Assembly (NCBI RefSeq): GCF_017358165.1
Contig: NZ_CP071446.1
Coordinates: 1,550,001 to 1,614,000 of the forward strand
DNA from: Thermosipho ferrireducens
Lineage (GTDB): Bacteria > Thermotogota > Thermotogae > Thermotogales > Fervidobacteriaceae
Length of the DNA stretch: 64,000 nt
Direction: 5' to 3'
The notes beneath the pieces are model-generated. The model was not told the DNA's origin. It was given only the letters and a program-made list of their open reading frames with translations, and made no database searches. Made by a program: the position numbers and the translations under genes. This document shows, piece after piece, positions 32,539 through 61,176 of this stretch. Positions within the stretch are counted from its first letter, which is position 1. Every line of letters starts with the position of its first letter.

Positions 32539-35500
32539 ATGAAAAAAATAGCGATTTTAATTTTAACAAGTTTTTCTCTAATTCTTCTTGCAAGTATAAC
32601 AAACATTACCTATTACGAGTCTAACGGAGAAATAATTTCAGTGTTTGAATTTGATAAACCAATTGCACCATCTTATGTGGAATTCGGCTGGAACGAATCT
32701 AAAACAGTTTATTATTTGCAAATCTCAAAAGAGTATATTGAAAACACTTATTTACCTGTTTCAAAAGGTCCGCTTGAAGGCATTCAAATTATTTCCACAA
32801 ATGGCGGTATTAACATTTTCTTTTTTACTATAGTACCTGTTAAAGCAGATTGGTATGTTTTAAATAACAAAATATATGTAAAAATGCCTCGATCTGTTTC
32901 GAAAAAACTTTTTAGTTTTTCATATGTGAATGCATCCCTTGATATTGTGGCAAGAGACTTTTCTGAAGCACTTGGCATAAACATTTCACTTTATGAAAGT
33001 GTTCGAGAGAAAACTGTGAATTTAAAGGTTGACAACGCCACTATCGAAGAAAGTCTACGACTGCTTTTACTTAATAATCCAGAAATTAGTTATGCATATG
33101 GTCCAAATAAAACTTTATACATAGGTTCACCTGAAGATATTCAAAAGAACTTTGCACGTTATTGGCAGGTTTACGAAGGGGAACTTAACGTTGAAAAGTT
33201 AAAATCATTACTTGCGTCTGGTACATTCGTTAAATATTTAGAAAACAAATCGAAGATATTCGTGTACGGAGGAGTTAGAGAACATAGAATGATAGCAGAT
33301 GCAATAGCTATTAAACCAACAAAAAGCTGGTATTATTATCCTTACAGTGTTTCCACGCAAACTGTAACAAAATTTATGGAAAATATCTCTGAAATTTACA
33401 GTGTAAAATATGTAATCCTTGATGGTCTAAAAAAAGTAGCCATTTACTCAAGTAGTGAGGCTGCAAAAACAATAGGGCGTCTGATTTCTTACTTAAAAGA
33501 AGAAATAGAATTTGAAAAAGAACCAACTGTAAAAATAAAAGTTAAATATCCTGACAGAATATTTGAAGTTTTATCGAGTCTGGGTGTAAATGTTCAAAAA
33601 CTTGGGAATTACATAGTTGTTCCGAAATCCAAGAAAGAAATAGTACTTAATTTGGAAAAAGATCATACTGTTGGAAATCCATATCGCCTGGTACTTGAAG
33701 ACGTTAAAATAGACACAGTTCAAAACGCTCTTAGATATTTAGGTATTTCAGAAAGTGATGGAATAGTTACTGAGAGCAATAACAAGGTATTTGTTACACT
33801 TTATGTAAGTGACGAAATTTATAGAAGATTTATTCAATTCTTAGAAATAGCCTCAATGAAAACTGCTATCGTAAATTTAGATGAAAATGAATTAAAAAAA
33901 TATAAAGTAACAATTATCAAGAAACTTTCAAATGGAAATTATCTTATTAGTGGAAAAGAAGAAGAGATTGATAAAATCAAACTATTAGTTTCAAAACAAA
34001 TGAAATCTGGATACACTAAACTGACTATAAAGTTGTTACCAACAGATCCTCCATTTGAGGTGCTTCAAACTTTACTTGAAGCAACTGGAACCAAAATTAA
34101 TGATGAAATTGTAGTATTTTCAGTCAAAAAAGATTTAGTAAGAGAGTTTGAAAACAAATTGAATAATCTGCGGAAAGAGTTTGGAAAAAAATATTATGTA
34201 ATTACTGACTATATAATTGACGAAAATCTGGAGAAAGCAATAAAAGATATGTACAACGTAGATATATCAAAAATCGGGGATAATTATCTTCTCATAGGAT
34301 ACGATATTGAACCTGCAAAGGATTTCATAAAAAGGTTTGGAATAATAAAAAAAGAAAGTTCGTACTACAACCAGACAATTAAAACAATTAAAGTATTATT
34401 AGAAAATTCTCAAGAGATAGAAAATATTCTAAAAGAATATTATAATGTAGACGCTAAATATTATTCATCTGTAAAATTACTTTTCATAAAAGGTACACCA
34501 GAAAAAATCAAATCTGCTGAAGAATTTTTAAAAACTATCATTACGGAAAAAATCCAATCGTCTTCAGAAAAAGTTTCCACAGAATTTCTTAAACAGCCTC
34601 TTCAGAAAGAACTCCTCTCATCTATAGAAAGTATAACAGGTGTTAAGATTTACACATTTGATTCCGGAAGCTTACTTGTTGGAAATAAACAAAACATTGA
34701 TTCTGCAAAAGCAATTTTAGATAGACTGTTAACTGATGCGACAATAGTTAAAGTTTCCACGCAATTGAGCGAAAAAGATATAGCAAAAATTATAAATGTG
34801 TACAACAACAAAGTAAATTTCTCTAAAGTTGGAAATTATGCGTATTTTTATGGAAATCCCGATATTATAAAAAGCATAATAAATGAAATCACAACAATTA
34901 CAAACGCATCAACCAAAACCATTGAGAAGCCAGAAATATACGTTGAAAATGAGAAGGTATATATAAGAGTTAATCAAAAACCACTACCAGAAGTAATAGT
35001 AAAAACTTTTACAAATTTTGGAAAATCTATTGTACTTTCCAACATACCAGAAACGCCTATTACAATAAATCTCGAAGGAGTATCTTTCGAACAATTTATA
35101 ACTGTTCTAAAAACATACAATGTAAAGATCGAAAAAAAAGATGACATATACTATGCCATCAAAATTCAAGCCGAAAGTGAAAACCTTGTTGAGCTAAAAA
35201 ATAATAAACTATTTGTCAGAGCAGAAAATATGCCCATAAGTTTTCTTGTAAAAGAAGTGTATAACAAGTTTGGATATTCCGTAGTAGTCAATGGAGTTTC
35301 AGAAACAATTAGTATGGTCTTAAATAACTCATCACTTGAAGACTTTGAAAGGATTTTAAAATCTAAGGTAAATATCATAAAAAACGATAATATAGTTTTT
35401 ATAACACCTATTGAAAAATCCGAAAAAGAACTACTGAGTAAAACTCTTGAAGGCACAATAAGGGTAAACGATGGATTGATTACTATAAACGCTGAATCCG

Positions 35501-36591
35501 TTTCTCTTGAAGAAATCATAAAAAGCATAATGCAAAAATTAGGATATTCAGTTGTTTTTTCAAAAAAACTGGATAAATCTGTAAATATTTATGCTAAAGA
35601 TATCACTTTTGATACATTTAAGAGAATAGCAGAAAATTATAATGTAAATATAGAAAAACAGAACAATTTATATTTTGTAAGCGAGACCAGCAATGCTACC
35701 AAAACTGTTGATTCATTTATATTTGCTGTTCCGCGCGGCGCTGATAAAATAAACGAACTCGTAAAATTCTACGGCGGTAGCACCTACATAGATACGGATA
35801 GTGGACTTGTAATCGCCACTGGTATAAATGCAAAAATTGCTGGTGAAATAAAACAACTGATAGAAAAAATTTCACAGGTGAAATTAGCTTCTATAGAAGT
35901 TAAAGTAATAGATGAAGAAACACTGGATTCGTTTGTCTCAGATCTTGGAACAATGTTTATCTCGGATCTTGGAACGATAACAAATCGCGATATGCAATTA
36001 AGAATAGGCGTTGGAGATGCTCGAATTGACAAAATTATGAAAAAATTAATAAGTATAGGAAATGAAATAGGGAAAGCAGAAATCGGCATAAACACCACAG
36101 CTGGAGCTCTTGAAAAAAATAATGGAAAAAGCAATGTAATTGCCAGCCCAAATATCGTCGCTAAAAGTGGTGAAACTGCAAATATACTAATTGGTGACAA
36201 ATATCCTATTATTCTCAAACAGGGTGAAAATCAAACTGAAACCATACAATATTTAGAATCTGGAATAAGCCTCAGTATAACTCCTTACATAAATGCTGAT
36301 GACACCATAGATCTTTCACTGCAAATCAAAGTTAGCTCTTTTGATTGGTCTGTGAGTAACCCGTATGGACTACCAAAAGAAAATACAAGGGAAGTTAATA
36401 CGAGTTTAACATTAAAAAATGGTCAAACATTGATAATAGGTGGATTAACCAGAGAGGAAAAAAGCAACTCTGTTTCAAAACTTCCAATTTTGGGCGATCT
36501 TCCCATAATAGGAAAATTTTTCAAAACAGAAAAAGAAAGTACCATTAAACGTAATATCATAGTCTTTATCACTGCGAAGGTGGTGAAATAA
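32539..36591 (+). CDS. Very large secretin (PilQ/GspD family)
   Basis: A 1350-residue outer-membrane secretin, about twice the common length. A signal peptide (1-20) starts it. Residues about 125-1130 hold many short alpha/beta ring modules: I count roughly eight N1-like and four STN/N0-like copies by eye. The C-terminal secretin core has ASPNIVAKSGETANILIGDK and SGISLSITPYI, then KLPILGDLPIIGKFFK, the family's last motif. It forms the channel through which the pilus or DNA passes. GGGGAGGGG precedes the ATG. The long periplasmic part may suit the wide envelope space of this phylum. Confidence 0.93.
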   Translation: MKKIAILILTSFSLILLASITNITYYESNGEIISVFEFDKPIAPSYVEFGWNESKTVYYLQISKEYIENTYLPVSKGPLEGIQIISTNGGINIFFFTIVPVKADWYVLNNKIYVKMPRSVSKKLFSFSYVNASLDIVARDFSEALGINISLYESVREKTVNLKVDNATIEESLRLLLLNNPEISYAYGPNKTLYIGSPEDIQKNFARYWQVYEGELNVEKLKSLLASGTFVKYLENKSKIFVYGGVREHRMIADAIAIKPTKSWYYYPYSVSTQTVTKFMENISEIYSVKYVILDGLKKVAIYSSSEAAKTIGRLISYLKEEIEFEKEPTVKIKVKYPDRIFEVLSSLGVNVQKLGNYIVVPKSKKEIVLNLEKDHTVGNPYRLVLEDVKIDTVQNALRYLGISESDGIVTESNNKVFVTLYVSDEIYRRFIQFLEIASMKTAIVNLDENELKKYKVTIIKKLSNGNYLISGKEEEIDKIKLLVSKQMKSGYTKLTIKLLPTDPPFEVLQTLLEATGTKINDEIVVFSVKKDLVREFENKLNNLRKEFGKKYYVITDYIIDENLEKAIKDMYNVDISKIGDNYLLIGYDIEPAKDFIKRFGIIKKESSYYNQTIKTIKVLLENSQEIENILKEYYNVDAKYYSSVKLLFIKGTPEKIKSAEEFLKTIITEKIQSSSEKVSTEFLKQPLQKELLSSIESITGVKIYTFDSGSLLVGNKQNIDSAKAILDRLLTDATIVKVSTQLSEKDIAKIINVYNNKVNFSKVGNYAYFYGNPDIIKSIINEITTITNASTKTIEKPEIYVENEKVYIRVNQKPLPEVIVKTFTNFGKSIVLSNIPETPITINLEGVSFEQFITVLKTYNVKIEKKDDIYYAIKIQAESENLVELKNNKLFVRAENMPISFLVKEVYNKFGYSVVVNGVSETISMVLNNSSLEDFERILKSKVNIIKNDNIVFITPIEKSEKELLSKTLEGTIRVNDGLITINAESVSLEEIIKSIMQKLGYSVVFSKKLDKSVNIYAKDITFDTFKRIAENYNVNIEKQNNLYFVSETSNATKTVDSFIFAVPRGADKINELVKFYGGSTYIDTDSGLVIATGINAKIAGEIKQLIEKISQVKLASIEVKVIDEETLDSFVSDLGTMFISDLGTITNRDMQLRIGVGDARIDKIMKKLISIGNEIGKAEIGINTTAGALEKNNGKSNVIASPNIVAKSGETANILIGDKYPIILKQGENQTETIQYLESGISLSITPYINADDTIDLSLQIKVSSFDWSVSNPYGLPKENTREVNTSLTLKNGQTLIIGGLTREEKSNSVSKLPILGDLPIIGKFFKTEKESTIKRNIIVFITAKVVK

Positions 36592-41003: not shown

Positions 41004-41052
41004 AAAAAAGGCGGTAAAAGTCCCCATGTAATGCGCCTTTACCGCCTTTTTA
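41004..41052 (-). terminator. Intrinsic terminator of the purine operon
   Basis: A 15-bp arm pair (AAAAAAGGCGGTAAA with TTTACCGCCTTTTT) encloses about 19 bases, followed by a T-run on the minus strand. It is placed just after the 8-oxoguanine-deaminase-like gene and before rsmH. Confidence 0.85.
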
Positions 41053-41118: not shown

Positions 41119-42474
41119 CTACTTTGACGCTTTTTCTATTAATTTTTTTGAAATACTATTGTGCTTGTTTATAAGCAACTCAAGATCTTCATCAAGAATT
41201 TCTCCATCTTTTATTTTTATTACTCCATTTATAACTGATAAATCAACCTGTTTTGCATCACATAACACGATTGCGTTGAGTGGATCACTTAATCCTCCGG
41301 CAAACTCAAGTTTATCCATTTTAAACCCAATAAAATCTGCTGCCATTAAAGGAGATATCTTTCCTATATAATCATCCATTCGTAAAACCTTTGCTCCGCC
41401 CATTGTACCAAGCTCCAGAACTTCAGATACGGTTAACGCATCAGCCCCGTATCTTACCCTCTGTAATAAAAGTGCATTTCTTATTTCTGAAATCATGTTA
41501 TTTGTATCATTGCTGGCACTTCCGTCCACAGCTATTCCTATTCTGATTTTATCTTTTAACTTTACAATAGGAGCTATACCAGAACCCAAACGCATGTTCG
41601 AAGACGGGCAATGTGCCATTCCAACATTATATTTTGAGAGTTTTTCAATATCTTCATCGTTAAGCCAGACCATGTGAGCAAACCATACTCTTGAATTCAA
41701 CCATCCAAGTTCTTCCATATAATCAACCGGCCTTTTTCCAAACTTTTCTAAGCAATACTCTTCTTCATCTTTTGTTTCAGCAAGATGTGTATGAAGTAAA
41801 ACATCATATTTTTCAGCAAGTTTTACCGTTTCAATCATAAGCTCAGGAGTCACTGAAAAAGGAGAACACGGAGCCAGAGCTATTCTCAACATTGAATATT
41901 TTTCAGAATTGTGGTACTTTTCTATAACTCTTACACTTTCCTGAAGAATTTCTTCATCTTTTTGAACAACACTATCTGGTGGCAATCCTCCATCTTTTTT
42001 ACTGAGAGACATACTTCCTCTTGTAGGGTGAAACCTTATACCCGTCCGTAACGCCGCTTCAATCTCAGCATCAAAAAGCTTGTTGTTGCCGTAAGGATAT
42101 AAATATAAATGATCTGTTGTAGTGGTAACTCCTGTTTTAATCATCTCATACATTGCAATTACTGCACTTATGTATACAGCTTCTTCATCAATGTATTTCC
42201 ATATTTCGTACAGATACACAAGCCAATCAAAAAGTTTTTTATCGGGAGCCAGTCCCCGAGTTAATGACTGAAACAAATGATGATGCGTATTCACAAATCC
42301 TGGAATCACCACATATCCATCCATATCATACACTTCATCTGCTTTAATATTTTCCCAATTTTTTCCCACTTTTTTTATAATATTATCTTCTATGAGAATA
42401 TATCCATTTTCAATATTTCCCAGGGTTTCATCAAATGTGTACAGAAAAGATATATTTTTAAATAGTTTTGTCAC
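41119..42474 (-). CDS. Amidohydrolase, probable 8-oxoguanine deaminase (TRZ/ATZ family)
   Basis: A 451-residue metal-dependent amidohydrolase. His64-His65-His66 in NTHHHLFQSLTRG, LLHTHLAET, and GMAHCPSSN with VDGSASND supply the metal ligands. The stretch HPTRGSMSLSKKDGGLPPDS is one I associate with 8-oxoguanine deaminases, which turn 8-oxoguanine into urate. Guanine or triazine relatives are alternatives. The GTG start at 42474 has GAGGAGGG upstream; a longer frame to 42489 would overlap the next gene. It is the last of a four-gene purine operon. Confidence 0.88.
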   Translation of the reverse strand: MTKLFKNISFLYTFDETLGNIENGYILIEDNIIKKVGKNWENIKADEVYDMDGYVVIPGFVNTHHHLFQSLTRGLAPDKKLFDWLVYLYEIWKYIDEEAVYISAVIAMYEMIKTGVTTTTDHLYLYPYGNNKLFDAEIEAALRTGIRFHPTRGSMSLSKKDGGLPPDSVVQKDEEILQESVRVIEKYHNSEKYSMLRIALAPCSPFSVTPELMIETVKLAEKYDVLLHTHLAETKDEEEYCLEKFGKRPVDYMEELGWLNSRVWFAHMVWLNDEDIEKLSKYNVGMAHCPSSNMRLGSGIAPIVKLKDKIRIGIAVDGSASNDTNNMISEIRNALLLQRVRYGADALTVSEVLELGTMGGAKVLRMDDYIGKISPLMAADFIGFKMDKLEFAGGLSDPLNAIVLCDAKQVDLSVINGVIKIKDGEILDEDLELLINKHNSISKKLIEKASK

Positions 42475-42485
42475 GTTTTCCCTCC

Positions 42486-43904
42486 TCAATCGGAAAAGTA
42501 CATCTCCATTAATTCATTTTTATGTGCTTCTCTGTATTCTTCGATTAGCTTGTTGGTTTCAAAGACTTTCTCCTGCTGGGCTCTCCAATATGCCTGATCT
42601 CTTTGTTTGTCAAGTTCTTCAACAGTTTTTCCCTGTTGCTCTACCCATGTGTAATATTTAAGATTGTGCCATCTTTCTCGACTCCATTTGTCTCCCTCAA
42701 ATATCCAGCTTGGTTCCTGATAAAGTAATATTCTCTCTGTTCTCGATTTTGCTTCTGCTCTATCTAATTTTCCAAACTGCCTCGTTAAATCCTCCATTAC
42801 TGATCTGTATCTTTCTATACTATCAGTTGCAACTATGAATATATTATCCTCTGATGAGAAGTTATAGAATTTAGCTATTTTAATAGCCCCTATAAGATTC
42901 GCTACACCAGATATTCCAAATTTATCAGAGATAAAATCAACAGCATCTGATGGAACGAATTCCTTAAGGAATTTCATTCCTTCCGGGTCGCTAAGTACCT
43001 GTAACATTTTTTTAGAATCCATGTCATCTACCAATACAACAGCATCGTTGTTCATAACATTATGAATCCATGTTACGTGTTTGTCTCCTATTCCCTGAAT
43101 GTCATGACCACCATACCCATTCATAGCTATTGTAGGACATTGTAATGGTTCAACAGTTACAACTTTTGTTTCAGGAAACTCCTGTTTTACTCTGTCGCCA
43201 CTTGCTATTGTACCTGCAGAACCAACTCCCAAAACTATAGCCGATATTCTTCCATTGCCTATTTTCTTCTCTTTTACGAGTTCTATCATTGTGTTACCTG
43301 TAACGTAATAATGAAATCTGTAATTCCCAAACTCTTCAAACTGATTCAAAATTCTTACATGTTCTGGATCCTTTTGATATAGTTCTTTGGATTTGTCGTA
43401 TATTTCTTTTACATTAGATTCACACCCTGGTGTGGCTATAACTTCTGAACCATATTTCCTTATTAATTCAAAACGTTCTTTACTCATTAATTCTGGAAGA
43501 ATCACTATAGACTTATAATTCATTCTTGATGAGACCCAGGCCCCACCTATCCCATAATTTCCAGTAGATGGCCATATCAACGTGTGCTTTAGCGGATCAA
43601 CTTCACCTGAAACAGTTTTTTCAGCCAGAACAGAATACGTAGCACCAACTTTATGACTTCCAGATGGAAAATTTTTAGCATATAAAACTATTATGTTTGC
43701 ATCAACCCCGGTTAACTCTTTCGGCATTACAAAGTAGTATATCTCATCATTTTCGTCTCTCCACGTTATATTATACAAATTAACAGGATGTAAAGGATCT
43801 TTCTTCTTCATTTCAATAGCCCTTTTTCTTATCTCAGGATCAATCTTCCACGGATGTAGCATTTCTTCAAACGTTGGACCAACAACGGGGATTTTCTTTG
43901 CCAT
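42486..43904 (-). CDS. PLP-dependent enzyme of fold type II, substrate unknown
   Basis: A 472-residue protein of the cysteine synthase/threonine dehydratase fold. PLP-binding Lys85 lies in FPSGSHKVGATY, the STGNYG at 113-118 takes the place of the substrate loop TSGNTG, and GVGSAGTIASG at 226-236 binds the PLP phosphate. The C-terminal 150 residues are extra compared with cysteine synthases and rich in Trp and charged residues. I do not recognise a named activity. It sits between a molybdenum hydroxylase and a purine deaminase, which suggests a role with purine-derived or amino-acid substrates. Confidence 0.88.
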   Translation of the reverse strand: MAKKIPVVGPTFEEMLHPWKIDPEIRKRAIEMKKKDPLHPVNLYNITWRDENDEIYYFVMPKELTGVDANIIVLYAKNFPSGSHKVGATYSVLAEKTVSGEVDPLKHTLIWPSTGNYGIGGAWVSSRMNYKSIVILPELMSKERFELIRKYGSEVIATPGCESNVKEIYDKSKELYQKDPEHVRILNQFEEFGNYRFHYYVTGNTMIELVKEKKIGNGRISAIVLGVGSAGTIASGDRVKQEFPETKVVTVEPLQCPTIAMNGYGGHDIQGIGDKHVTWIHNVMNNDAVVLVDDMDSKKMLQVLSDPEGMKFLKEFVPSDAVDFISDKFGISGVANLIGAIKIAKFYNFSSEDNIFIVATDSIERYRSVMEDLTRQFGKLDRAEAKSRTERILLYQEPSWIFEGDKWSRERWHNLKYYTWVEQQGKTVEELDKQRDQAYWRAQQEKVFETNKLIEEYREAHKNELMEMYFSD

Positions 43905-43931
43905 TGTAAAACCTCCTTTTTAATTTTTAAA

Positions 43932-46190
43932 TTAGATTATATCCTCCATTGCAATTGGTATTTTCCGTATTCTTTTTCCTAAAGCATGTGAAACTGCGTT
44001 AGCAACTGAAGGTGGAGAACTCATTAACGAAGGTTCTCCCAACCCTTTTGCTCCAAAAGGACCTTCAGGATACATATCTTCCACAAAATCCACATGTATA
44101 TTTTCTGGAACATCTTTCACCGTTGGAATTAAATAGTTATTAAAGTTGTTTGTAATAATTTGTCCATTGTTCATCTTGATTTCTTCCATAACAGCGTAGC
44201 CCATCCCCTGAACTACTCCTCCATGCACCTGTCCAACGGCTCCATCATAGTTTATGACTTTTCCAATATCATGGCAAACCCAAGCCTCTTTTAATTGAAT
44301 TTTTCCAGTTAAAAGATCAACTTCTACTAAAGAAAGTTGAGTACTAAAAGTGTAAGTAACATAGGCTTCACCTATTCCATTTTCGTGGTCAAAGTGAAGT
44401 TTTGGTGTTTCAAACCATCCCATTTCCACAAGTTTCACGTTGTTATTGTTGCATAAGGTAGCAATTTCGTCAAAAGAAAAGATCTTATCACGTATATAGC
44501 ATTTTCCATTTTCAAAAACTATTTCATTATGTCCAACTCCAAAATAATTTGAAAGGAACGTTTTCATATTACTTTTTATTTTTTCCGCAGCAATTTTTAC
44601 GGCATTTCCACTGAATACCGTTGTTCGTGACGCTACAGTAGGACCACTATCCTGAACAACAAGAGTTTGAGGTTGCATAACATGTATTTTAGAAACATCC
44701 TGACCAAGAACTTCCGCGGCTATAATTGCCATGGTTGTTTTTGCTCCCTGACCCATTTCAGTATTTCCTATCATGACATTTATAGTCCCATCCGAATGCA
44801 CATGAACTTTCGCGCCTGCGCCATCAAGGTGTTGCCCACCAGAACCAAGACTTACTCCATAAAATATGTGTGACCAGCCAAGTCCTAATTTTTTGTAAGT
44901 ATTAGATTTATTGTATTTCTCTACCTTTTCTTTTAAATTCAGATAATCTGACATTTTGTAAACTCGCTCTAATGTTTTTTTAGCTCCAACTGAAGATACA
45001 AGTTTATGGCCGGTGGCTGTTTCTTCATTTATATCCAGAGCATTCTTATATCTGATTTCATAAGGATCAATTCCAAGTTTTTTGGCAGCTTCGTCCATTA
45101 TAGCCTCCATTGCAAATAAAACCTGAGGCGAGCCAAATCCCCTGAATGCTCCACATGGAACTTTATTCGTATATATGGCGTAAACATCCACATAAACATT
45201 TGGAACTTTATAAGCACCGCATGAATGTATTGTCGTTCGATACATAACAATAGGCGAAAGTGTCGAATAAGCGCCCATATCAAGATAGACCGACGTTTCA
45301 ACAGCAATTAACGTCCCATCCTTTTTAAAAGCAACTTTGTATTTTGATTTGCTCGGATGCCTTTTACTCGTTTCCTTTATATCCATTTCCCTTGTATAAA
45401 TAATTTTTACCGGTCTTTTTGTAAGATATGATAGCAACGCTGGCTTTGCAGCAATATAAGATGGAACGTCTTCTTTTCCACCAAAACCACCACCTGTTTC
45501 TGTTTGAATCACGTTTATTTTATTAAGGGGAAGATTCAAAATAGATGCGACATCTTCCTGAACATAAAAAGGACATTGTGCTGTCACGTAAATTTCCAGA
45601 ATATCTTCCGGTGTATAAAACGCAACAGCTCCTTGAGGTTCAAGGTAAGCATGTTCCTGATAACCTGTCTCAAAATCCATTTCAATAATAAGATCAGCTT
45701 CTTTAAATGCTTTGCTCACATCACCCTTTCTTATTTTTCGATGAAACGCCACATTAGTTTTGCCATTGACAACTGGATCGTCTTTCAACGCTTCATCAAT
45801 TGTAAGAACTGGGGGCAAATCTTCTATTTCGAATTTTACAAGTTCTGCTGCCTTTTGTGCTATTTCAGGTGTTTCAGCTGCTACCAATGCTATAACGTCT
45901 CCTTCAAATCGAACTTTATCACCCTCTGGAACTAAAAAATTCATATCCTTTGTAACTATTCCAAATTTATTACTTCCAGGAACGTCTTTATAAGTAGCAA
46001 CATATACTACTCCGGGCAATTTCTCTGCTTCTGTAGTGTCAATTTTCTTAAGAATTCCGTGAGGTTTGTTTGCATACACCACTGCACCATAAAGCATATT
46101 ATGAAAATAATAATCAGCAGCATATCTGGCAGTCCCCTGTACTTTGGCAGCCCCATCTATTCGCTTAACTTTCTTACCTATATACTTCAC
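43932..46190 (-). CDS. Molybdenum hydroxylase large subunit, xanthine dehydrogenase-like
   Basis: A 752-residue Mo-subunit like XdhA, which hydroxylates purine rings. TGGGFGGKE at 232-240 and GAFRGFGSPQ at 347-356 contact the molybdopterin cofactor. EMGQGAKTTM lies further on, and GLGEP with catalytic Glu719 is near the C-terminus. Small [2Fe-2S] and FAD subunits that normally pair with it are not adjacent. Between adenine deaminase and an 8-oxoguanine-deaminase-like gene, hypoxanthine or xanthine is a likely substrate; nicotinate or an aldehyde cannot be excluded. Confidence 0.9.
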   Translation of the reverse strand: MKYIGKKVKRIDGAAKVQGTARYAADYYFHNMLYGAVVYANKPHGILKKIDTTEAEKLPGVVYVATYKDVPGSNKFGIVTKDMNFLVPEGDKVRFEGDVIALVAAETPEIAQKAAELVKFEIEDLPPVLTIDEALKDDPVVNGKTNVAFHRKIRKGDVSKAFKEADLIIEMDFETGYQEHAYLEPQGAVAFYTPEDILEIYVTAQCPFYVQEDVASILNLPLNKINVIQTETGGGFGGKEDVPSYIAAKPALLSYLTKRPVKIIYTREMDIKETSKRHPSKSKYKVAFKKDGTLIAVETSVYLDMGAYSTLSPIVMYRTTIHSCGAYKVPNVYVDVYAIYTNKVPCGAFRGFGSPQVLFAMEAIMDEAAKKLGIDPYEIRYKNALDINEETATGHKLVSSVGAKKTLERVYKMSDYLNLKEKVEKYNKSNTYKKLGLGWSHIFYGVSLGSGGQHLDGAGAKVHVHSDGTINVMIGNTEMGQGAKTTMAIIAAEVLGQDVSKIHVMQPQTLVVQDSGPTVASRTTVFSGNAVKIAAEKIKSNMKTFLSNYFGVGHNEIVFENGKCYIRDKIFSFDEIATLCNNNNVKLVEMGWFETPKLHFDHENGIGEAYVTYTFSTQLSLVEVDLLTGKIQLKEAWVCHDIGKVINYDGAVGQVHGGVVQGMGYAVMEEIKMNNGQIITNNFNNYLIPTVKDVPENIHVDFVEDMYPEGPFGAKGLGEPSLMSSPPSVANAVSHALGKRIRKIPIAMEDII

Positions 46191-46204
46191 AACTTCACCT
46201 CCAA

Positions 46205-47926
46205 TTAAACAAACAGATCCACTATTTCCTGTTTTGAAACTTTAACCAATCCTTTATTTGTTATTTTCAACTCCGGTATTACAGCAAGCTGTAAAAAATG
46301 TATATTCATAAGAACATCATCTGTACATCCAAGAAGCTTTATAGCCTGTTTCAGTTCTTTCAGCTGTTTTGTAACTACATCAAGTGATTTATCTGACATC
46401 AATCCAGCAATTGGCAACGGCATTTCAGCCAGCACTTTCCCATTTTTTACAATTACTATTCCCCCGTTATTTTTAACAACTCTTTGCATTGCTGTATATA
46501 TGTCAGCATCGTTCATACCAACAACACCAAGGTTATGTGAATCATGCCCAATTGTAGTTGCAATTGCACCATCTTTTATATTTAAACCGCTCACAAATCC
46601 TATACTAAACCCGGACGCGTTATGTCGATCAAAGACAACTATTTTCGCAAGATCTTTTTGAACAACTGGAATTACCTCTCCTTTTTTAACTGAAGGTTCT
46701 ATTATCAACTCTTTTGTCAAAAGAGAGTCACTTATCAAACCTATAACCCTTATTTTTTTACCTCTATCCTTGACTTTCAAGTCTTCTAACTCTATTTCTT
46801 TTACGTTAATTTTTCCAACAGTAGATGGAATATTATTAAAAACACTTGCAATCTCTGAAACAATTTTTCCTTTTTCAGACACAATTTTTGTATCTTTTAT
46901 TACCATTTCTATTTCAAAATTCTCTAAACTGTTCACAAATACTAAATCTGCTTTATATCCCGGGGCAATTGCTCCCATACTTCTCAAATTAAAATAACGA
47001 GCGGTATTTATTGTAGCCATACGAATTGCCAGAATAGGATCCAGCCCCTGTTTTATAGCCTCGCGAATTATACCATCTATATGCCCTCTTTCTTCGATAT
47101 CTAAAGGATCTCTATCATCTGTGCAAAAGGAAAAAAATTGATGATTAAATACATCCACAGCCGGTAACAATGCATCTAAATTCCTTGCAGCAGTACCTTC
47201 TCTTATAAAAATTTGCATACCACGAGAAACTTTTTCTAAAGCTTCATCGATTTTTTCACATTCATGGTCTGAACGTACAAAGGCATCAATATAAGCATTT
47301 AATTCCTTTTTTGACAAACCTGGAGCATGCCCATCTATTTTTTTGTATTTATGTCTTAAAATTTCAATTTTCGCAATTAACTCCCTATCACAGTTCAACA
47401 CTCCAGGATAGTTCATTACCTCACCAAGAGCTATTATTCTAAAAGGATATTTATCTACAAAGCTGACCATATCTTCAGGCCCAAGTCTGGCTCCAGAAGT
47501 TTCAAGCTCGGTTGCCGGAACAGCAGATGGTATGGCAATATAAACGTTTAACGGTATCCCTTCAGTTGCTTTTATTATGTATTCTAACCCCTCAGTTCCT
47601 AAAACATTTGCTATTTCATGGGGATCAGCTATTATTGTGGTAGTCCCGTGCGGTAAAATAGCCTTGGCAAATTCTATGGGAGATAACATGGAACTTTCTA
47701 TATGTATATGCGCGTCAATTAAACCTGGGATAACATAAAGCCCTTTTGCATCGATAACATCTTTCGCCGTTTTATAATCTCCAATACCCGCTATTCTTTT
47801 TTTGTAAAGAGCTATGTTTGTTTCTTCAATTCTTCCGGTAAACACATTTACTATTTTTGCGTTTTTGATCAACAAATCTGCAGGTTCTTTTTCCAGAGCA
47901 ACTGGCACTATTTCCTTTATTTTCAT
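46205..47926 (-). CDS. ade: Adenine deaminase
   Basis: Hydrolyses adenine to hypoxanthine and ammonia. The 573-residue chain has the amidohydrolase start VIPGLIDAHIHIESSMLSP (His73, His75), then GTTTIIADPHEIANVLG. IGHDSHNLGVVG lies in the C-terminal half and is specific to this family. Length is normal. It leads the operon; the molybdenum hydroxylase starts 14 bp downstream. The short leader shows no purine riboswitch. Confidence 0.95.
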   Translation of the reverse strand: MKIKEIVPVALEKEPADLLIKNAKIVNVFTGRIEETNIALYKKRIAGIGDYKTAKDVIDAKGLYVIPGLIDAHIHIESSMLSPIEFAKAILPHGTTTIIADPHEIANVLGTEGLEYIIKATEGIPLNVYIAIPSAVPATELETSGARLGPEDMVSFVDKYPFRIIALGEVMNYPGVLNCDRELIAKIEILRHKYKKIDGHAPGLSKKELNAYIDAFVRSDHECEKIDEALEKVSRGMQIFIREGTAARNLDALLPAVDVFNHQFFSFCTDDRDPLDIEERGHIDGIIREAIKQGLDPILAIRMATINTARYFNLRSMGAIAPGYKADLVFVNSLENFEIEMVIKDTKIVSEKGKIVSEIASVFNNIPSTVGKINVKEIELEDLKVKDRGKKIRVIGLISDSLLTKELIIEPSVKKGEVIPVVQKDLAKIVVFDRHNASGFSIGFVSGLNIKDGAIATTIGHDSHNLGVVGMNDADIYTAMQRVVKNNGGIVIVKNGKVLAEMPLPIAGLMSDKSLDVVTKQLKELKQAIKLLGCTDDVLMNIHFLQLAVIPELKITNKGLVKVSKQEIVDLFV

Positions 47927-47958: not shown

Positions 47959-47991
47959 AAAATATCGCCCTTTGAAAAAGGGCGATATTTT
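47959..47991 (-). terminator. Intrinsic terminator of the flagellin gene
   Basis: A 15-bp perfect stem (AAAATATCGCCCTTT with AAAGGGCGATATTTT) with a 3-base loop, followed on the minus strand by a T-run. It lies between the flagellin stop and the ade start. Confidence 0.88.
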
Positions 47992-55768: not shown

Positions 55769-56137
55769 TTATTCACCTTCACTTTCGATAAATTTTAAAT
55801 ATTCATCTTTGTCAAAAAGCTCATCTAACTGGGCAGGATCTGAAATTTCAATTTTTACAAGCCATCCTTTGCCTTCTGCATCTTCATTAACAAGCTCTGG
55901 AGAAGTTTCGAGTTCTTCATTTATTTCTACTACTTTTCCTGAAACTGGAGCATAAACATCTGTTGCAGCTTTAACACTTTCTATTGATAAGATTATTTCA
56001 CCTTTTTCGACCTCTTTATCAACTTCAGGCAAATCCACATAAACTATATCCCCCAACTCTTTTTGAGCATGTTCTGTTATACCCATGTAACCAGTATCTG
56101 TATCAATCCATTCATGAGTCTTTGTGTATTTTTTCAT
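55769..56137 (-). CDS. gcvH: Glycine cleavage system H protein
   Basis: The lipoyl carrier that moves the aminomethyl group in glycine cleavage. Lys56 in SIESVKAATDVY is the lipoylation site. The 122-residue chain and the opening YTKTHEWIDTDTGYMGIT are typical. The start at 56137 has GGGGAGGG upstream; a longer frame (56155) is less likely. No gcvT or gcvP is nearby. Free-standing GcvH proteins may also serve in lipoate relay. Confidence 0.94.
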   Translation of the reverse strand: MKKYTKTHEWIDTDTGYMGITEHAQKELGDIVYVDLPEVDKEVEKGEIILSIESVKAATDVYAPVSGKVVEINEELETSPELVNEDAEGKGWLVKIEISDPAQLDELFDKDEYLKFIESEGE

Positions 56138-56245
56138 TACTTTATCCCTCCCCAATTAGTTTTGTTCACAAATATTTTAACACATGAAAGCATGTTTTCA
56201 AGTTACGTTTTAAATGGTTTTTAGAAAAATTAGACACTAAACACT

Positions 56246-60096: not shown

Positions 60097-61176
60097 TCAA
60101 AACGGAATTTCTATCCCCTTCAACCAGAAAGCTTTTAATTCTTCCTCTGTGGAAGGAATTTTTATTTTCCCAATTCCTACAAGATTTTGTATGTAAACAA
60201 TTTCTGCCAACAGTTTATTTGATACTAAACCTTTGGTAAATGGCATTCTACTTATACCTTCACCTTTTTCTTTGATTCCCAGTTCAACATTGCCAGGTTC
60301 CCATTCACCTGTATAAGCTTTAACAACACCTAAATAGGAAGCAACATCCACTCTTTTAATAGCACTCGCTAATATATGTCCAGGTGCCTGCCATTCCTGT
60401 TCTATATCACCACCAAGCATGAACACTCCCCCATTTTTATACAGGTCATCAATGAATTCTGGAAGATTATCTATATTAGCTCTTTTTTGATTTTCTTCTT
60501 TTATCGCTTCTAAAAGCCCAAGTGCTGTACCACCACAGGCTTGTTGAATAATATCGTACCCTTCGCTTATTAAAGCCTGCCCAAATTCTTTACCTTTTTT
60601 TGGATCAGTAAATGTATTTGCATAGACACTTTTCACTTTGATGTTAGTCTTATGAATCTGGTTATACGCTTTTACCCCCGCCTCAAAACCTATAACATAT
60701 CTTTGGACTGGAGGGATGGGGATACCGCCTAATATTGCTACTTTTCCTGTTCTTGTCATTCCCGCTGCCAGGTATCCTGTTAAAAAACTACCTTCCTGCT
60801 CTTTAAAAGTAAAAGTCATCACATTTGGAAGGTTTTTTTCTTCTGGAAAGCTGAAATCAATACCAACAAAATACGTTGCAGGATATTGCTGAGCAACTTT
60901 GAAAAAGGCATCAGACATTAAAAAACCTACAGCAAAGACCACATCTGCTTCTTCTGCAGCTTTGCTGAGGTTTGGAATATAGTCGCTTTGTTCTTTTGAC
61001 TGAATAACTTCATATTCAAGTCCATACTCTTCTGCAGCTTTAACAATTCCGGCCCATGTCCCATCCATAAATGAACCATCTCCGAGTCCTCCTATGTCTG
61101 TCACCATAATAACTTTAAAAGCAAATCCAGAAACAATTAACCCTACTAAAAAAGCCAGCATAAAAAATCTTTTCAT
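60097..61176 (-). CDS. BMP-family substrate-binding protein (nucleoside uptake)
   Basis: A 359-residue exported protein. The signal peptide (about 1-19) has no lipobox Cys. KVIMVTDIGGLGDGSFMDGTW is the family opening, with VVFAVGFLMSDAF and VAILGGIPIPPVQRYVIGFE after it. BMP proteins (PnrA-like) bind purine nucleosides for an ABC importer. ATPase and permease genes are not adjacent. GGGGGAG precedes the ATG. The purine operon at 41119-47926 gives a possible metabolic link. Confidence 0.92.
   Translation of the reverse strand: MKRFFMLAFLVGLIVSGFAFKVIMVTDIGGLGDGSFMDGTWAGIVKAAEEYGLEYEVIQSKEQSDYIPNLSKAAEEADVVFAVGFLMSDAFFKVAQQYPATYFVGIDFSFPEEKNLPNVMTFTFKEQEGSFLTGYLAAGMTRTGKVAILGGIPIPPVQRYVIGFEAGVKAYNQIHKTNIKVKSVYANTFTDPKKGKEFGQALISEGYDIIQQACGGTALGLLEAIKEENQKRANIDNLPEFIDDLYKNGGVFMLGGDIEQEWQAPGHILASAIKRVDVASYLGVVKAYTGEWEPGNVELGIKEKGEGISRMPFTKGLVSNKLLAEIVYIQNLVGIGKIKIPSTEEELKAFWLKGIEIPF

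What the first reader, a model, noticed from the sequence alone, without database searches (positions are those of the whole stretch)
41119..47926. Purine operon that contains an orphan PLP enzyme
Seen: four co-directional genes with gaps of 11-27 bp: adenine deaminase, molybdenum hydroxylase large subunit, fold-type II PLP enzyme with Lys85, and an 8-oxoguanine-deaminase-like amidohydrolase. Known: the first, second and fourth handle purine rings. The PLP family member has no obvious place in purine metabolism. Inference: it may act on an amino-acid product of ring breakdown or represent a new step of purine fermentation.
Basis: partly seen in the sequence, partly recalled or inferred. Interest (0 to 1): 0.6.

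Follow-up and report, generated by a model that had tools for sequence, protein, structure and literature searches.

The report
Uric-acid pathway enzyme replacing YgeX
The puzzling vitamin-B6 enzyme in this purine operon belongs to a widespread, apparently undescribed branch of the recently discovered anaerobic uric-acid breakdown pathway, where it and a second B6 enzyme stand in for the known last-step enzyme (YgeX) and probably turn the final amino acid into serine and then pyruvate.

Summary
In detail: a four-gene minus-strand operon (adenine deaminase, xanthine-dehydrogenase-type Mo subunit, 472-aa fold-II PLP enzyme with Lys85, 8-oxoguanine deaminase; gaps 14, 27, 11 bp). The PLP enzyme is not an orphan. 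Its family (invariant HKV, STGN and GIGDKH) recurs in anaerobic uric-acid clusters across many phyla, for example YgeY-YgeW-PLP-HyuA-SsnA-UacX. In this genome the rest of the reductive uric-acid pathway is in two other operons: YgeY-YgeW-HyuA-SsnA-UacX, and a threonine-synthase-like PLP protein with FeS, FAD and Mo subunits. The known terminal enzyme YgeX (2,3-diaminopropionate ammonia-lyase) is absent from all 103 Thermotogota searched and almost never shares a genome with this family elsewhere. The PLP enzyme and the threonine-synthase-like protein co-occur almost one to one (63 both, 35 neither, 5 discordant). I conclude that this pair replaces YgeX. Asp274 in the GIGDKH loop aligns with Asp232 of Fn1055, which makes serine from cysteine and water, so the likely chemistry is diaminopropionate + water -> serine + ammonia, with the partner then making pyruvate. 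Pathway membership is strongly supported; the exact reaction is inferred. I found no published description of this variant.

The parts
46205..47926 (-). adenine deaminase (ade), first gene of the operon: adenine to hypoxanthine
   Evidence: TIGR01178 597 bits, above the cut-off of 472; Pfam Adenine_deam_C
43932..46190 (-). molybdenum hydroxylase large subunit, xanthine-dehydrogenase type; no FeS/FAD subunits beside it
   Evidence: Ald_Xan_dh_C, MoCoBD_1, MoCoBD_2; best NCBIfam TIGR02965, 513 bits, below its cut-off; FeS/FAD genes elsewhere in the genome
42486..43904 (-). fold-type-II PLP enzyme, 472 aa (K85; STGN 113-116; GIGDKH 271-276; C-terminal NLKYxTWxEQQ 414-424); proposed uric-acid pathway enzyme that, with a ThrC-like partner, replaces YgeX
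   Evidence: PALP 86 bits; CysK-like but 142 bits against an equivalog cut-off of 351; invariant residues; AF2 model pLDDT 92.9; CysK/CBS/Fn1055 fold
41119..42474 (-). 8-oxoguanine deaminase-type amidohydrolase, likely start GTG 42474 (longer ORF from TTG 42489)
   Evidence: NF006055 602.7 bits against a cut-off of 532; PDB relatives 3hpa and 7ww2
47959..47991 (.). bidirectional terminator-like hairpin between the flagellin gene and ade; a sigma-70-like match overlaps it (47978-47949)
   Evidence: consensus match only
41007..41050 (.). terminator-like inverted repeat (AAAGGCGGTAAA...TTTACCGCCTTT) after the last gene
   Evidence: read directly from the sequence; not listed by the scan, whose loop limit is 8

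Best explanation
The operon is one of three operons in this Thermotogota genome that together encode the anaerobic reductive uric-acid (purine) degradation pathway. The window operon feeds purines in: adenine deaminase, a xanthine-dehydrogenase-type Mo subunit, and 8-oxoguanine deaminase, which yields urate. The other two operons supply SsnA-, UacX-, HyuA-, YgeW- and YgeY-type enzymes, which would take urate to 2,3-diaminopropionate, plus a second Mo hydroxylase with FeS/FAD subunits. The known final enzyme, YgeX, is missing. The window PLP protein together with a threonine-synthase-like PLP protein (genome position 1,109,269-1,110,525) takes its place. Proposed mechanism: Lys85 forms the external aldimine, the beta-amino (or beta-ureido) group leaves to give alpha-aminoacrylate, and Asp274 of the GIGDKH loop activates water so that serine is released (hydrolytic beta-replacement, as in Fn1055). 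The ThrC-like partner then dehydrates serine to pyruvate and ammonia. Shown here: pathway context, co-occurrence, absence of YgeX, active-site residues. Inferred: substrate, the serine intermediate, and the division of labour.
For: 1) Context. The family lies in uric-acid clusters in many phyla: L009 XDH-XdhC-YgeY-YgeW-PLP-HyuA-SsnA-UacX-ThrC-like, L006 YgeY-UacY-PLP-ThrC-like-hydantoinase, L137-L140 PLP-ThrC-YgeY-hydantoinase-YgeW-XDH, G053 XDH-FeS-FAD-XdhC-PLP-YgeY-YgeW-HyuA-SsnA-UacX at 76% identity. 34 of 49 loci with at least 5 kb on each side hold a marker gene. 2) The own genome holds the other steps in two further operons. 3) Co-occurrence: YgeY above cut-off in 17 of 17 PLP+ and 0 of 4 PLP- Thermotogota, FeS subunit 17/17 against 0/4, ThrC-like partner 63 both, 2 PLP only, 3 ThrC only, 35 neither, partner in 26 of 28 other PLP+ genomes. 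4) YgeX absent from 103/103 Thermotogota and from 20 of 21 PLP+ genomes; in 41 relatives of L009, 10 have YgeX, 12 have PLP, none has both. The one genome with both keeps YgeX in a separate YgeX-YgeY-UacY operon. 5) Mechanism: D274, K275 and H276 are invariant (123/123); D274 aligns with Asp232 of Fn1055, seen in the wild-type and D232N sequences; Fn1055 makes serine from cysteine and water (PMC9865163). The ThrC-like partner lacks the Arg of the NxxRxEGQKT motif present in all five solved threonine synthases aligned.
Against: No biochemical data exist. CysK-type enzymes act on L-amino acids, whereas the pathway intermediates may be R (D-diaminopropionate; stereochemistry is called open in PMC12990295). 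Some PLP+ genomes (four Eisenbacteria, two Planctomycetota, Hakubella, one Cloacimonadota, one Thermotogota draft) show no YgeY, so the family is not strictly tied to the YgeY route, although most of them have the ThrC-like partner and some show other pathway genes beside it. The GIGDKH to Fn1055 match is one aligned position in a loop, at about 25% overall identity. Which of the two PALP proteins does which reaction cannot be read from sequence. Counts of genomes are not phylogenetically independent.
Confidence: 0.6

Rival explanations
1. The PLP protein alone is a direct functional analogue of YgeX: alpha,beta-elimination of 2,3-diaminopropionate to pyruvate and two ammonia. The ThrC-like protein has a different role, such as the other enantiomer, a racemase-type step, or another intermediate.
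For: Both YgeX and this protein are fold-type-II PALP enzymes, and this one occupies the clusters where YgeX is missing. YgeX handles both enantiomers (PMC12507026), so two enzymes could split that task.
Against: The YgeX motif TTDGNHG is replaced by PSTGNYG, the nearest fold is the beta-replacing CysK/CBS/Fn1055 group, and the near one-to-one ThrC-like partner suggests that the PLP protein does not finish the job alone.
Confidence: 0.22
2. The ThrC-like protein is the lyase that replaces YgeX, and the window PLP protein diverts the amino acid elsewhere: a beta-replacement of diaminopropionate or albizziin with sulfide to make cysteine, or a sulfur supply for the Mo cofactor of the adjacent hydroxylase.
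For: The PLP protein is closest to cysteine synthase and beta-cyanoalanine synthase and in Thermotogota it sits directly behind the Mo subunit.
Against: In Anaerobacterium, Fretibacterium and Chloroflexota (L006, L080, L014-L016) the gene sits with YgeY/UacY/YgeW and the ThrC-like gene, with no XDH gene within the flanks read. The CysK loop GIGAGF is replaced by an invariant GIGDKH, matching a water-using rather than a sulfide-using enzyme. The own genome already has CysK (L002).
Confidence: 0.12
3. It is an ordinary cysteine synthase, cystathionine synthase or ornithine-pathway (OrtB) enzyme that happens to sit in a purine operon.
For: It carries the PALP domain and scores 142 bits against cysK.
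Against: Far below every equivalog cut-off. The same genome encodes a separate CysK, a CBS-like protein and an OrtA-OrtB-like pair in an ornithine-type cluster; that OrtB barely aligns with it (27 bits). Context is conserved over many phyla.
Confidence: 0.03

Closest known systems
YgeX, 2,3-diaminopropionate ammonia-lyase, last step of the reductive uric-acid pathway (PMC12507026)
   Same: PALP fold; same pathway position; same gene neighbours (YgeY, YgeW or UacY, HyuA, SsnA, XDH)
   Different: Not the same family: TIGR03528 gives about 27 bits against a cut-off of 532; no TDGNHG motif; not seen in the same cluster; comes with a second, ThrC-like PALP protein
Fn1055, cysteine (hydroxyl) lyase of Fusobacterium nucleatum (PDB 5b53, 5b55)
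   Same: CysK-like fold; acid residue at the same loop position (Asp232 aligned with Asp274); predicted water-for-leaving-group replacement giving serine
   Different: About 25% identity; Fn1055 acts on cysteine; lacks the conserved N- and C-terminal extensions and the DKHVxWIHN motif
Cysteine synthase CysK / cystathionine beta-synthase (PF00291)
   Same: Closest sequence and fold matches, Asn loop, glycine-rich phosphate loop
   Different: Below all curated cut-offs; GIGAGF loop replaced; 472 aa rather than about 310
Reductive uric-acid degradation cluster of E. coli and C. difficile (ygfK/uacX, ssnA, hyuA, ygeW/uacY, ygeY, ygeX, xdhD)
   Same: All steps but the last have recognisable counterparts in this genome, with UacX as in C. 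difficile
   Different: YgeX replaced by two other PALP proteins; genes split over three operons; OTC-like carbamoyltransferase below the YgeW equivalog cut-off
OrtB, 2-amino-4-ketopentanoate thiolase beta subunit
   Same: Similar length, PALP domain
   Different: An OrtAB-like pair is elsewhere in this genome; almost no alignment

Membership tests
YgeX / 2,3-diaminopropionate ammonia-lyase | Reaches the TIGR03528 equivalog cut-off (532 bits) | tested here: not met
   26.6 bits; no hit at E<=1e-40 in 103 Thermotogota
YgeX / 2,3-diaminopropionate ammonia-lyase | Catalytic loop TDGNHG | tested here: not met
   STGNYG in the window protein; STGN invariant
YgeX / 2,3-diaminopropionate ammonia-lyase | Diaminopropionate to pyruvate and ammonia | not testable with these tools
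   needs assay
Cysteine synthase (CysK) | Reaches the cysK/cysKM cut-offs (351/344 bits) | tested here: not met
   142 and 137 bits
Cysteine synthase (CysK) | GIGAGF(I/V)P active-site loop | tested here: not met
   GIGDKHVTW; D, K, H in 123 of 123; own CysK has GIGAGFIP
Fold-type II PLP (PALP, PF00291) | PALP domain, Schiff-base Lys, Asn loop, glycine loop | tested here: met
   86 bits against 35; K85, STGN, GSAGT conserved; AF2 model matches CysK/CBS
Fn1055-type cysteine hydroxyl-lyase | Asp at loop position 232 | tested here: met
   D274 aligned with D232 (alignment of family member L077)
Fn1055-type cysteine hydroxyl-lyase | L-cysteine + water to L-serine + sulfide | not testable with these tools
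   needs assay
Reductive uric-acid pathway | SsnA, HyuA, YgfK/UacX, YgeW/UacY, YgeY and XDH genes in the genome | tested here: met
   two further operons in G000; YgeY 605 bits against 321; SsnA-, HyuA-, YgeW- and UacX-like proteins resemble these families but do not reach equivalog cut-offs
Reductive uric-acid pathway | YgeX as terminal enzyme | tested here: not met
   absent
Threonine synthase (partner protein) | Arg of the NxxRxEGQKT motif seen in solved threonine synthases | tested here: not met
   L/T/M/S/C in 38 of 38; EGKKT instead of EGQKT
OrtB (AKP thiolase beta) | OrtA partner next to it | tested here: not met
   no conserved small upstream ORF; OrtAB-like pair at 0.85 Mb

The most novel reading that the evidence does not exclude
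Across many anaerobic phyla the last step of uric-acid degradation is not a single ammonia-lyase. It is a two-enzyme PALP relay with serine as a true intermediate: a CysK-descended enzyme swaps the beta-nitrogen of diaminopropionate (or albizziin) for water, and a ThrC-descended dehydratase follows. That would give cells serine directly from purines, a biosynthetic branch point that YgeX bacteria lack.
Probability: 0.35. Interest if true: 0.7.

Novelty: new variant of a known kind. Interest (0 to 1): 0.55.

Why it matters
The anaerobic uric-acid pathway matters for gout and gut purine balance and was solved only in 2025, on YgeX-bearing bacteria. The survey in PMC12507026 marked the terminal enzyme by the broad PF00291 domain, which would lump this pair with YgeX. 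Recognising the PLP + ThrC-like variant extends the pathway to Thermotogota, Bacteroidota, Ignavibacteria and other lineages, gives two unnamed protein families a testable function, and would correct 'cysteine synthase' and 'threonine synthase' labels in many genomes.

Tried and rejected
OrtB (2-amino-4-ketopentanoate thiolase) was my first lead for the 470-aa PALP relatives; rejected because no OrtA-like gene accompanies them and the own genome has an OrtAB-like pair that hardly aligns. Direct YgeX orthology rejected. The xanthinase (Rabinowitz) glycine route was not pursued, because the genome carries the reductive-pathway genes. Literature: searches found the 2025 pathway paper and a commentary but no mention of a CysK-like or ThrC-like enzyme in uric-acid clusters; subscription papers, and the supplements of PMC12507026, could not be read. 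A Moco-sulfuration role was considered and ranked low. Promoter matches in this AT-rich region are little above shuffled controls.

Full report
Observation. The four genes are present as described. They lie on the minus strand: ade 47926-46205, Mo-hydroxylase large subunit 46190-43932, PALP enzyme 43904-42486, and 8-oxoguanine-deaminase-type amidohydrolase 42474 (or 42489)-41119. Start codons behind Shine-Dalgarno-like sequences give gaps of 14, 27 and 11 bp. Ade and the 8-oxoguanine deaminase exceed their curated NCBIfam cut-offs; the Mo subunit is closest to xanthine dehydrogenases without reaching a cut-off, and the PLP protein passes only the general PALP domain, with cysK at 142 bits against a cut-off of 351. 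The nearest solved structures of the PLP protein are cysteine synthases at low identity.

Not an orphan. Annotating the 80 best loci shows two groups, about 56-86% and about 43-50% identical to the window protein, and both occur in anaerobic uric-acid clusters. L009 (Peptostreptococcaceae, 68%) reads XDH, FeS, FAD, XdhC, YgeY, YgeW-like, PLP, HyuA-like, SsnA-like, UacX-like (dihydroorotate-dehydrogenase-like), threonine-synthase-like PLP protein, FAD, FeS, XDH. L006 reads YgeY, UacY-like D-aminoacylase, PLP, ThrC-like, hydantoinase. Of 49 loci with at least 5 kb on each side, 34 have a marker gene within 10 kb. Of 25 genomes, most of them chosen because their locus lacked such a neighbour, 16 have YgeY elsewhere.

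The rest of the pathway in this genome. YgeY lies at 1,708,658 in an operon YgeY-YgeW-HyuA-SsnA-UacX, a few kilobases downstream of pyruvate/2-oxoacid:ferredoxin oxidoreductase genes. A third operon at 1,104,393-1,110,525 holds a ThrC-like PALP protein, two FeS, two FAD and one Mo subunit. The window Mo subunit, which has no FeS or FAD gene beside it, plausibly uses one of those sets (inference). These are the steps of the reductive uric-acid pathway of PMC12507026, in the UacX form found in C. difficile. YgeY is above its cut-off; the SsnA, HyuA, YgeW and UacX counterparts are recognisable but below equivalog cut-offs, so their names rest on resemblance and context.

The missing step. YgeX, the last enzyme, is absent from all 103 Thermotogota genomes and from 20 of 21 genomes tested that carry the PLP gene. 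In 41 genomes of the L009 family, 10 have YgeX and 12 have the PLP gene, with no overlap (chance 0.018 if independent). In the one genome with both, YgeX sits in its own YgeX-YgeY-UacY operon, and L006 shows the same YgeY-UacY pair followed by PLP and ThrC-like instead of YgeX. Within Thermotogota the PLP and ThrC-like genes occur together in 63 genomes, neither in 35, one alone in 5; both PLP-only genomes are incomplete drafts (71% and 82%) and one ThrC-only hit is just 37% identical. The partner is found in 26 of 28 further PLP genomes, including most that lack YgeY. Its neighbourhoods in Hakubella and an Eisenbacteria genome again contain SsnA-type genes with XDH, UacX or FAD-subunit genes. 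These counts are not phylogenetically independent, but they span several phyla and repeated losses.

Active sites. In 123 full-length members H84, K85, STGN 113-116, C256, T258, GIGDKH 271-276, W279, D361, K416, Y417, W420, E422 and Q423 are invariant. The cysteine-synthase loop GIGAGF has become GIGDKH. In the alignment of family member L077 with Fn1055 (PDB 5b53), the residue equal to Asp274 falls on Asp232; the D232N entry 5b55, whose title says it holds an alpha-aminoacrylate intermediate, shows the N at that same column. Fn1055 converts cysteine and water to serine and sulfide (PMC9865163). This suggests that the window enzyme replaces a beta-substituent with water. The ThrC-like partner resembles threonine synthase in fold, but the Arg of the NxxRxEGQKT motif, which from general knowledge binds the phosphate of the normal substrate, is absent in 38 of 38, along with changes at ASTGNT, GNAGN and ATAI. 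So it is probably not a threonine synthase. AF2 models are confident (pLDDT 92.9 and 86.7).

Mechanism committed to. Urate to 2,3-diaminopropionate by the published steps; then PLP protein: diaminopropionate + water -> serine + ammonia (Lys85 aldimine, aminoacrylate, Asp274-activated water); then ThrC-like protein: serine -> pyruvate + ammonia; then pyruvate oxidoreductase. My confidence is about 0.95 that the protein belongs to this pathway, about 0.75 that the pair replaces YgeX, and about 0.35 for the serine relay in detail.

What is known and what is new. The pathway is known (PMC12507026, PMC12990295). The YgeX-less variant with two other PALP families was not found in any paper I could search; PMC12507026 marked 'YgeX' by PF00291 in its network, which would include both. 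Subscription literature was not searchable. I therefore class this as a new variant of a known kind.

Open points. The stereochemistry of diaminopropionate is unsettled (PMC12990295), and a CysK-type enzyme would favour the L form. A few lineages (Eisenbacteria, Planctomycetota) keep the PLP gene without YgeY, which could mean direct action on the ureido compound or other hydrolases. The division of labour between the two PALP proteins needs assay.

Noticed in passing
window 60097-61176 (-): Bmp/PnrA-like substrate-binding protein (PF02608), a family that often binds purine nucleosides; a possible purine uptake component near the operon, with no ABC partners checked.
   Followed up: partly
window 55769-56155 (-): Glycine cleavage H protein followed at once by a small membrane protein; no other glycine cleavage genes were noticed beside it.
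   Followed up: no
L149:6394-12526 (genome 1,104,393-1,110,525): One Mo subunit but two FeS and two FAD subunits in one operon, suggesting that the second set serves the window's lone Mo subunit.
   Followed up: partly
L196 (genome about 0.85 Mb): Ornithine degradation-type cluster with 2,4-diaminopentanoate dehydrogenase-like, OrtA-like, OrtB-like and OraS-like genes in this Thermotogota genome.
   Followed up: partly
L022-L031, L034-L036: Eisenbacteria and Planctomycetota loci carry the PLP gene (48-59% identity) without purine neighbours; the genomes tested lack YgeY, though most have the ThrC-like partner elsewhere. Their ureido-removing step is unexplained.
   Followed up: partly
window 32539-36591 (+): Very long (1350 aa) secretin-type protein, with the PF00263 match only at its C-terminal end, in what looks like a type IV pilus operon.
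   Followed up: no
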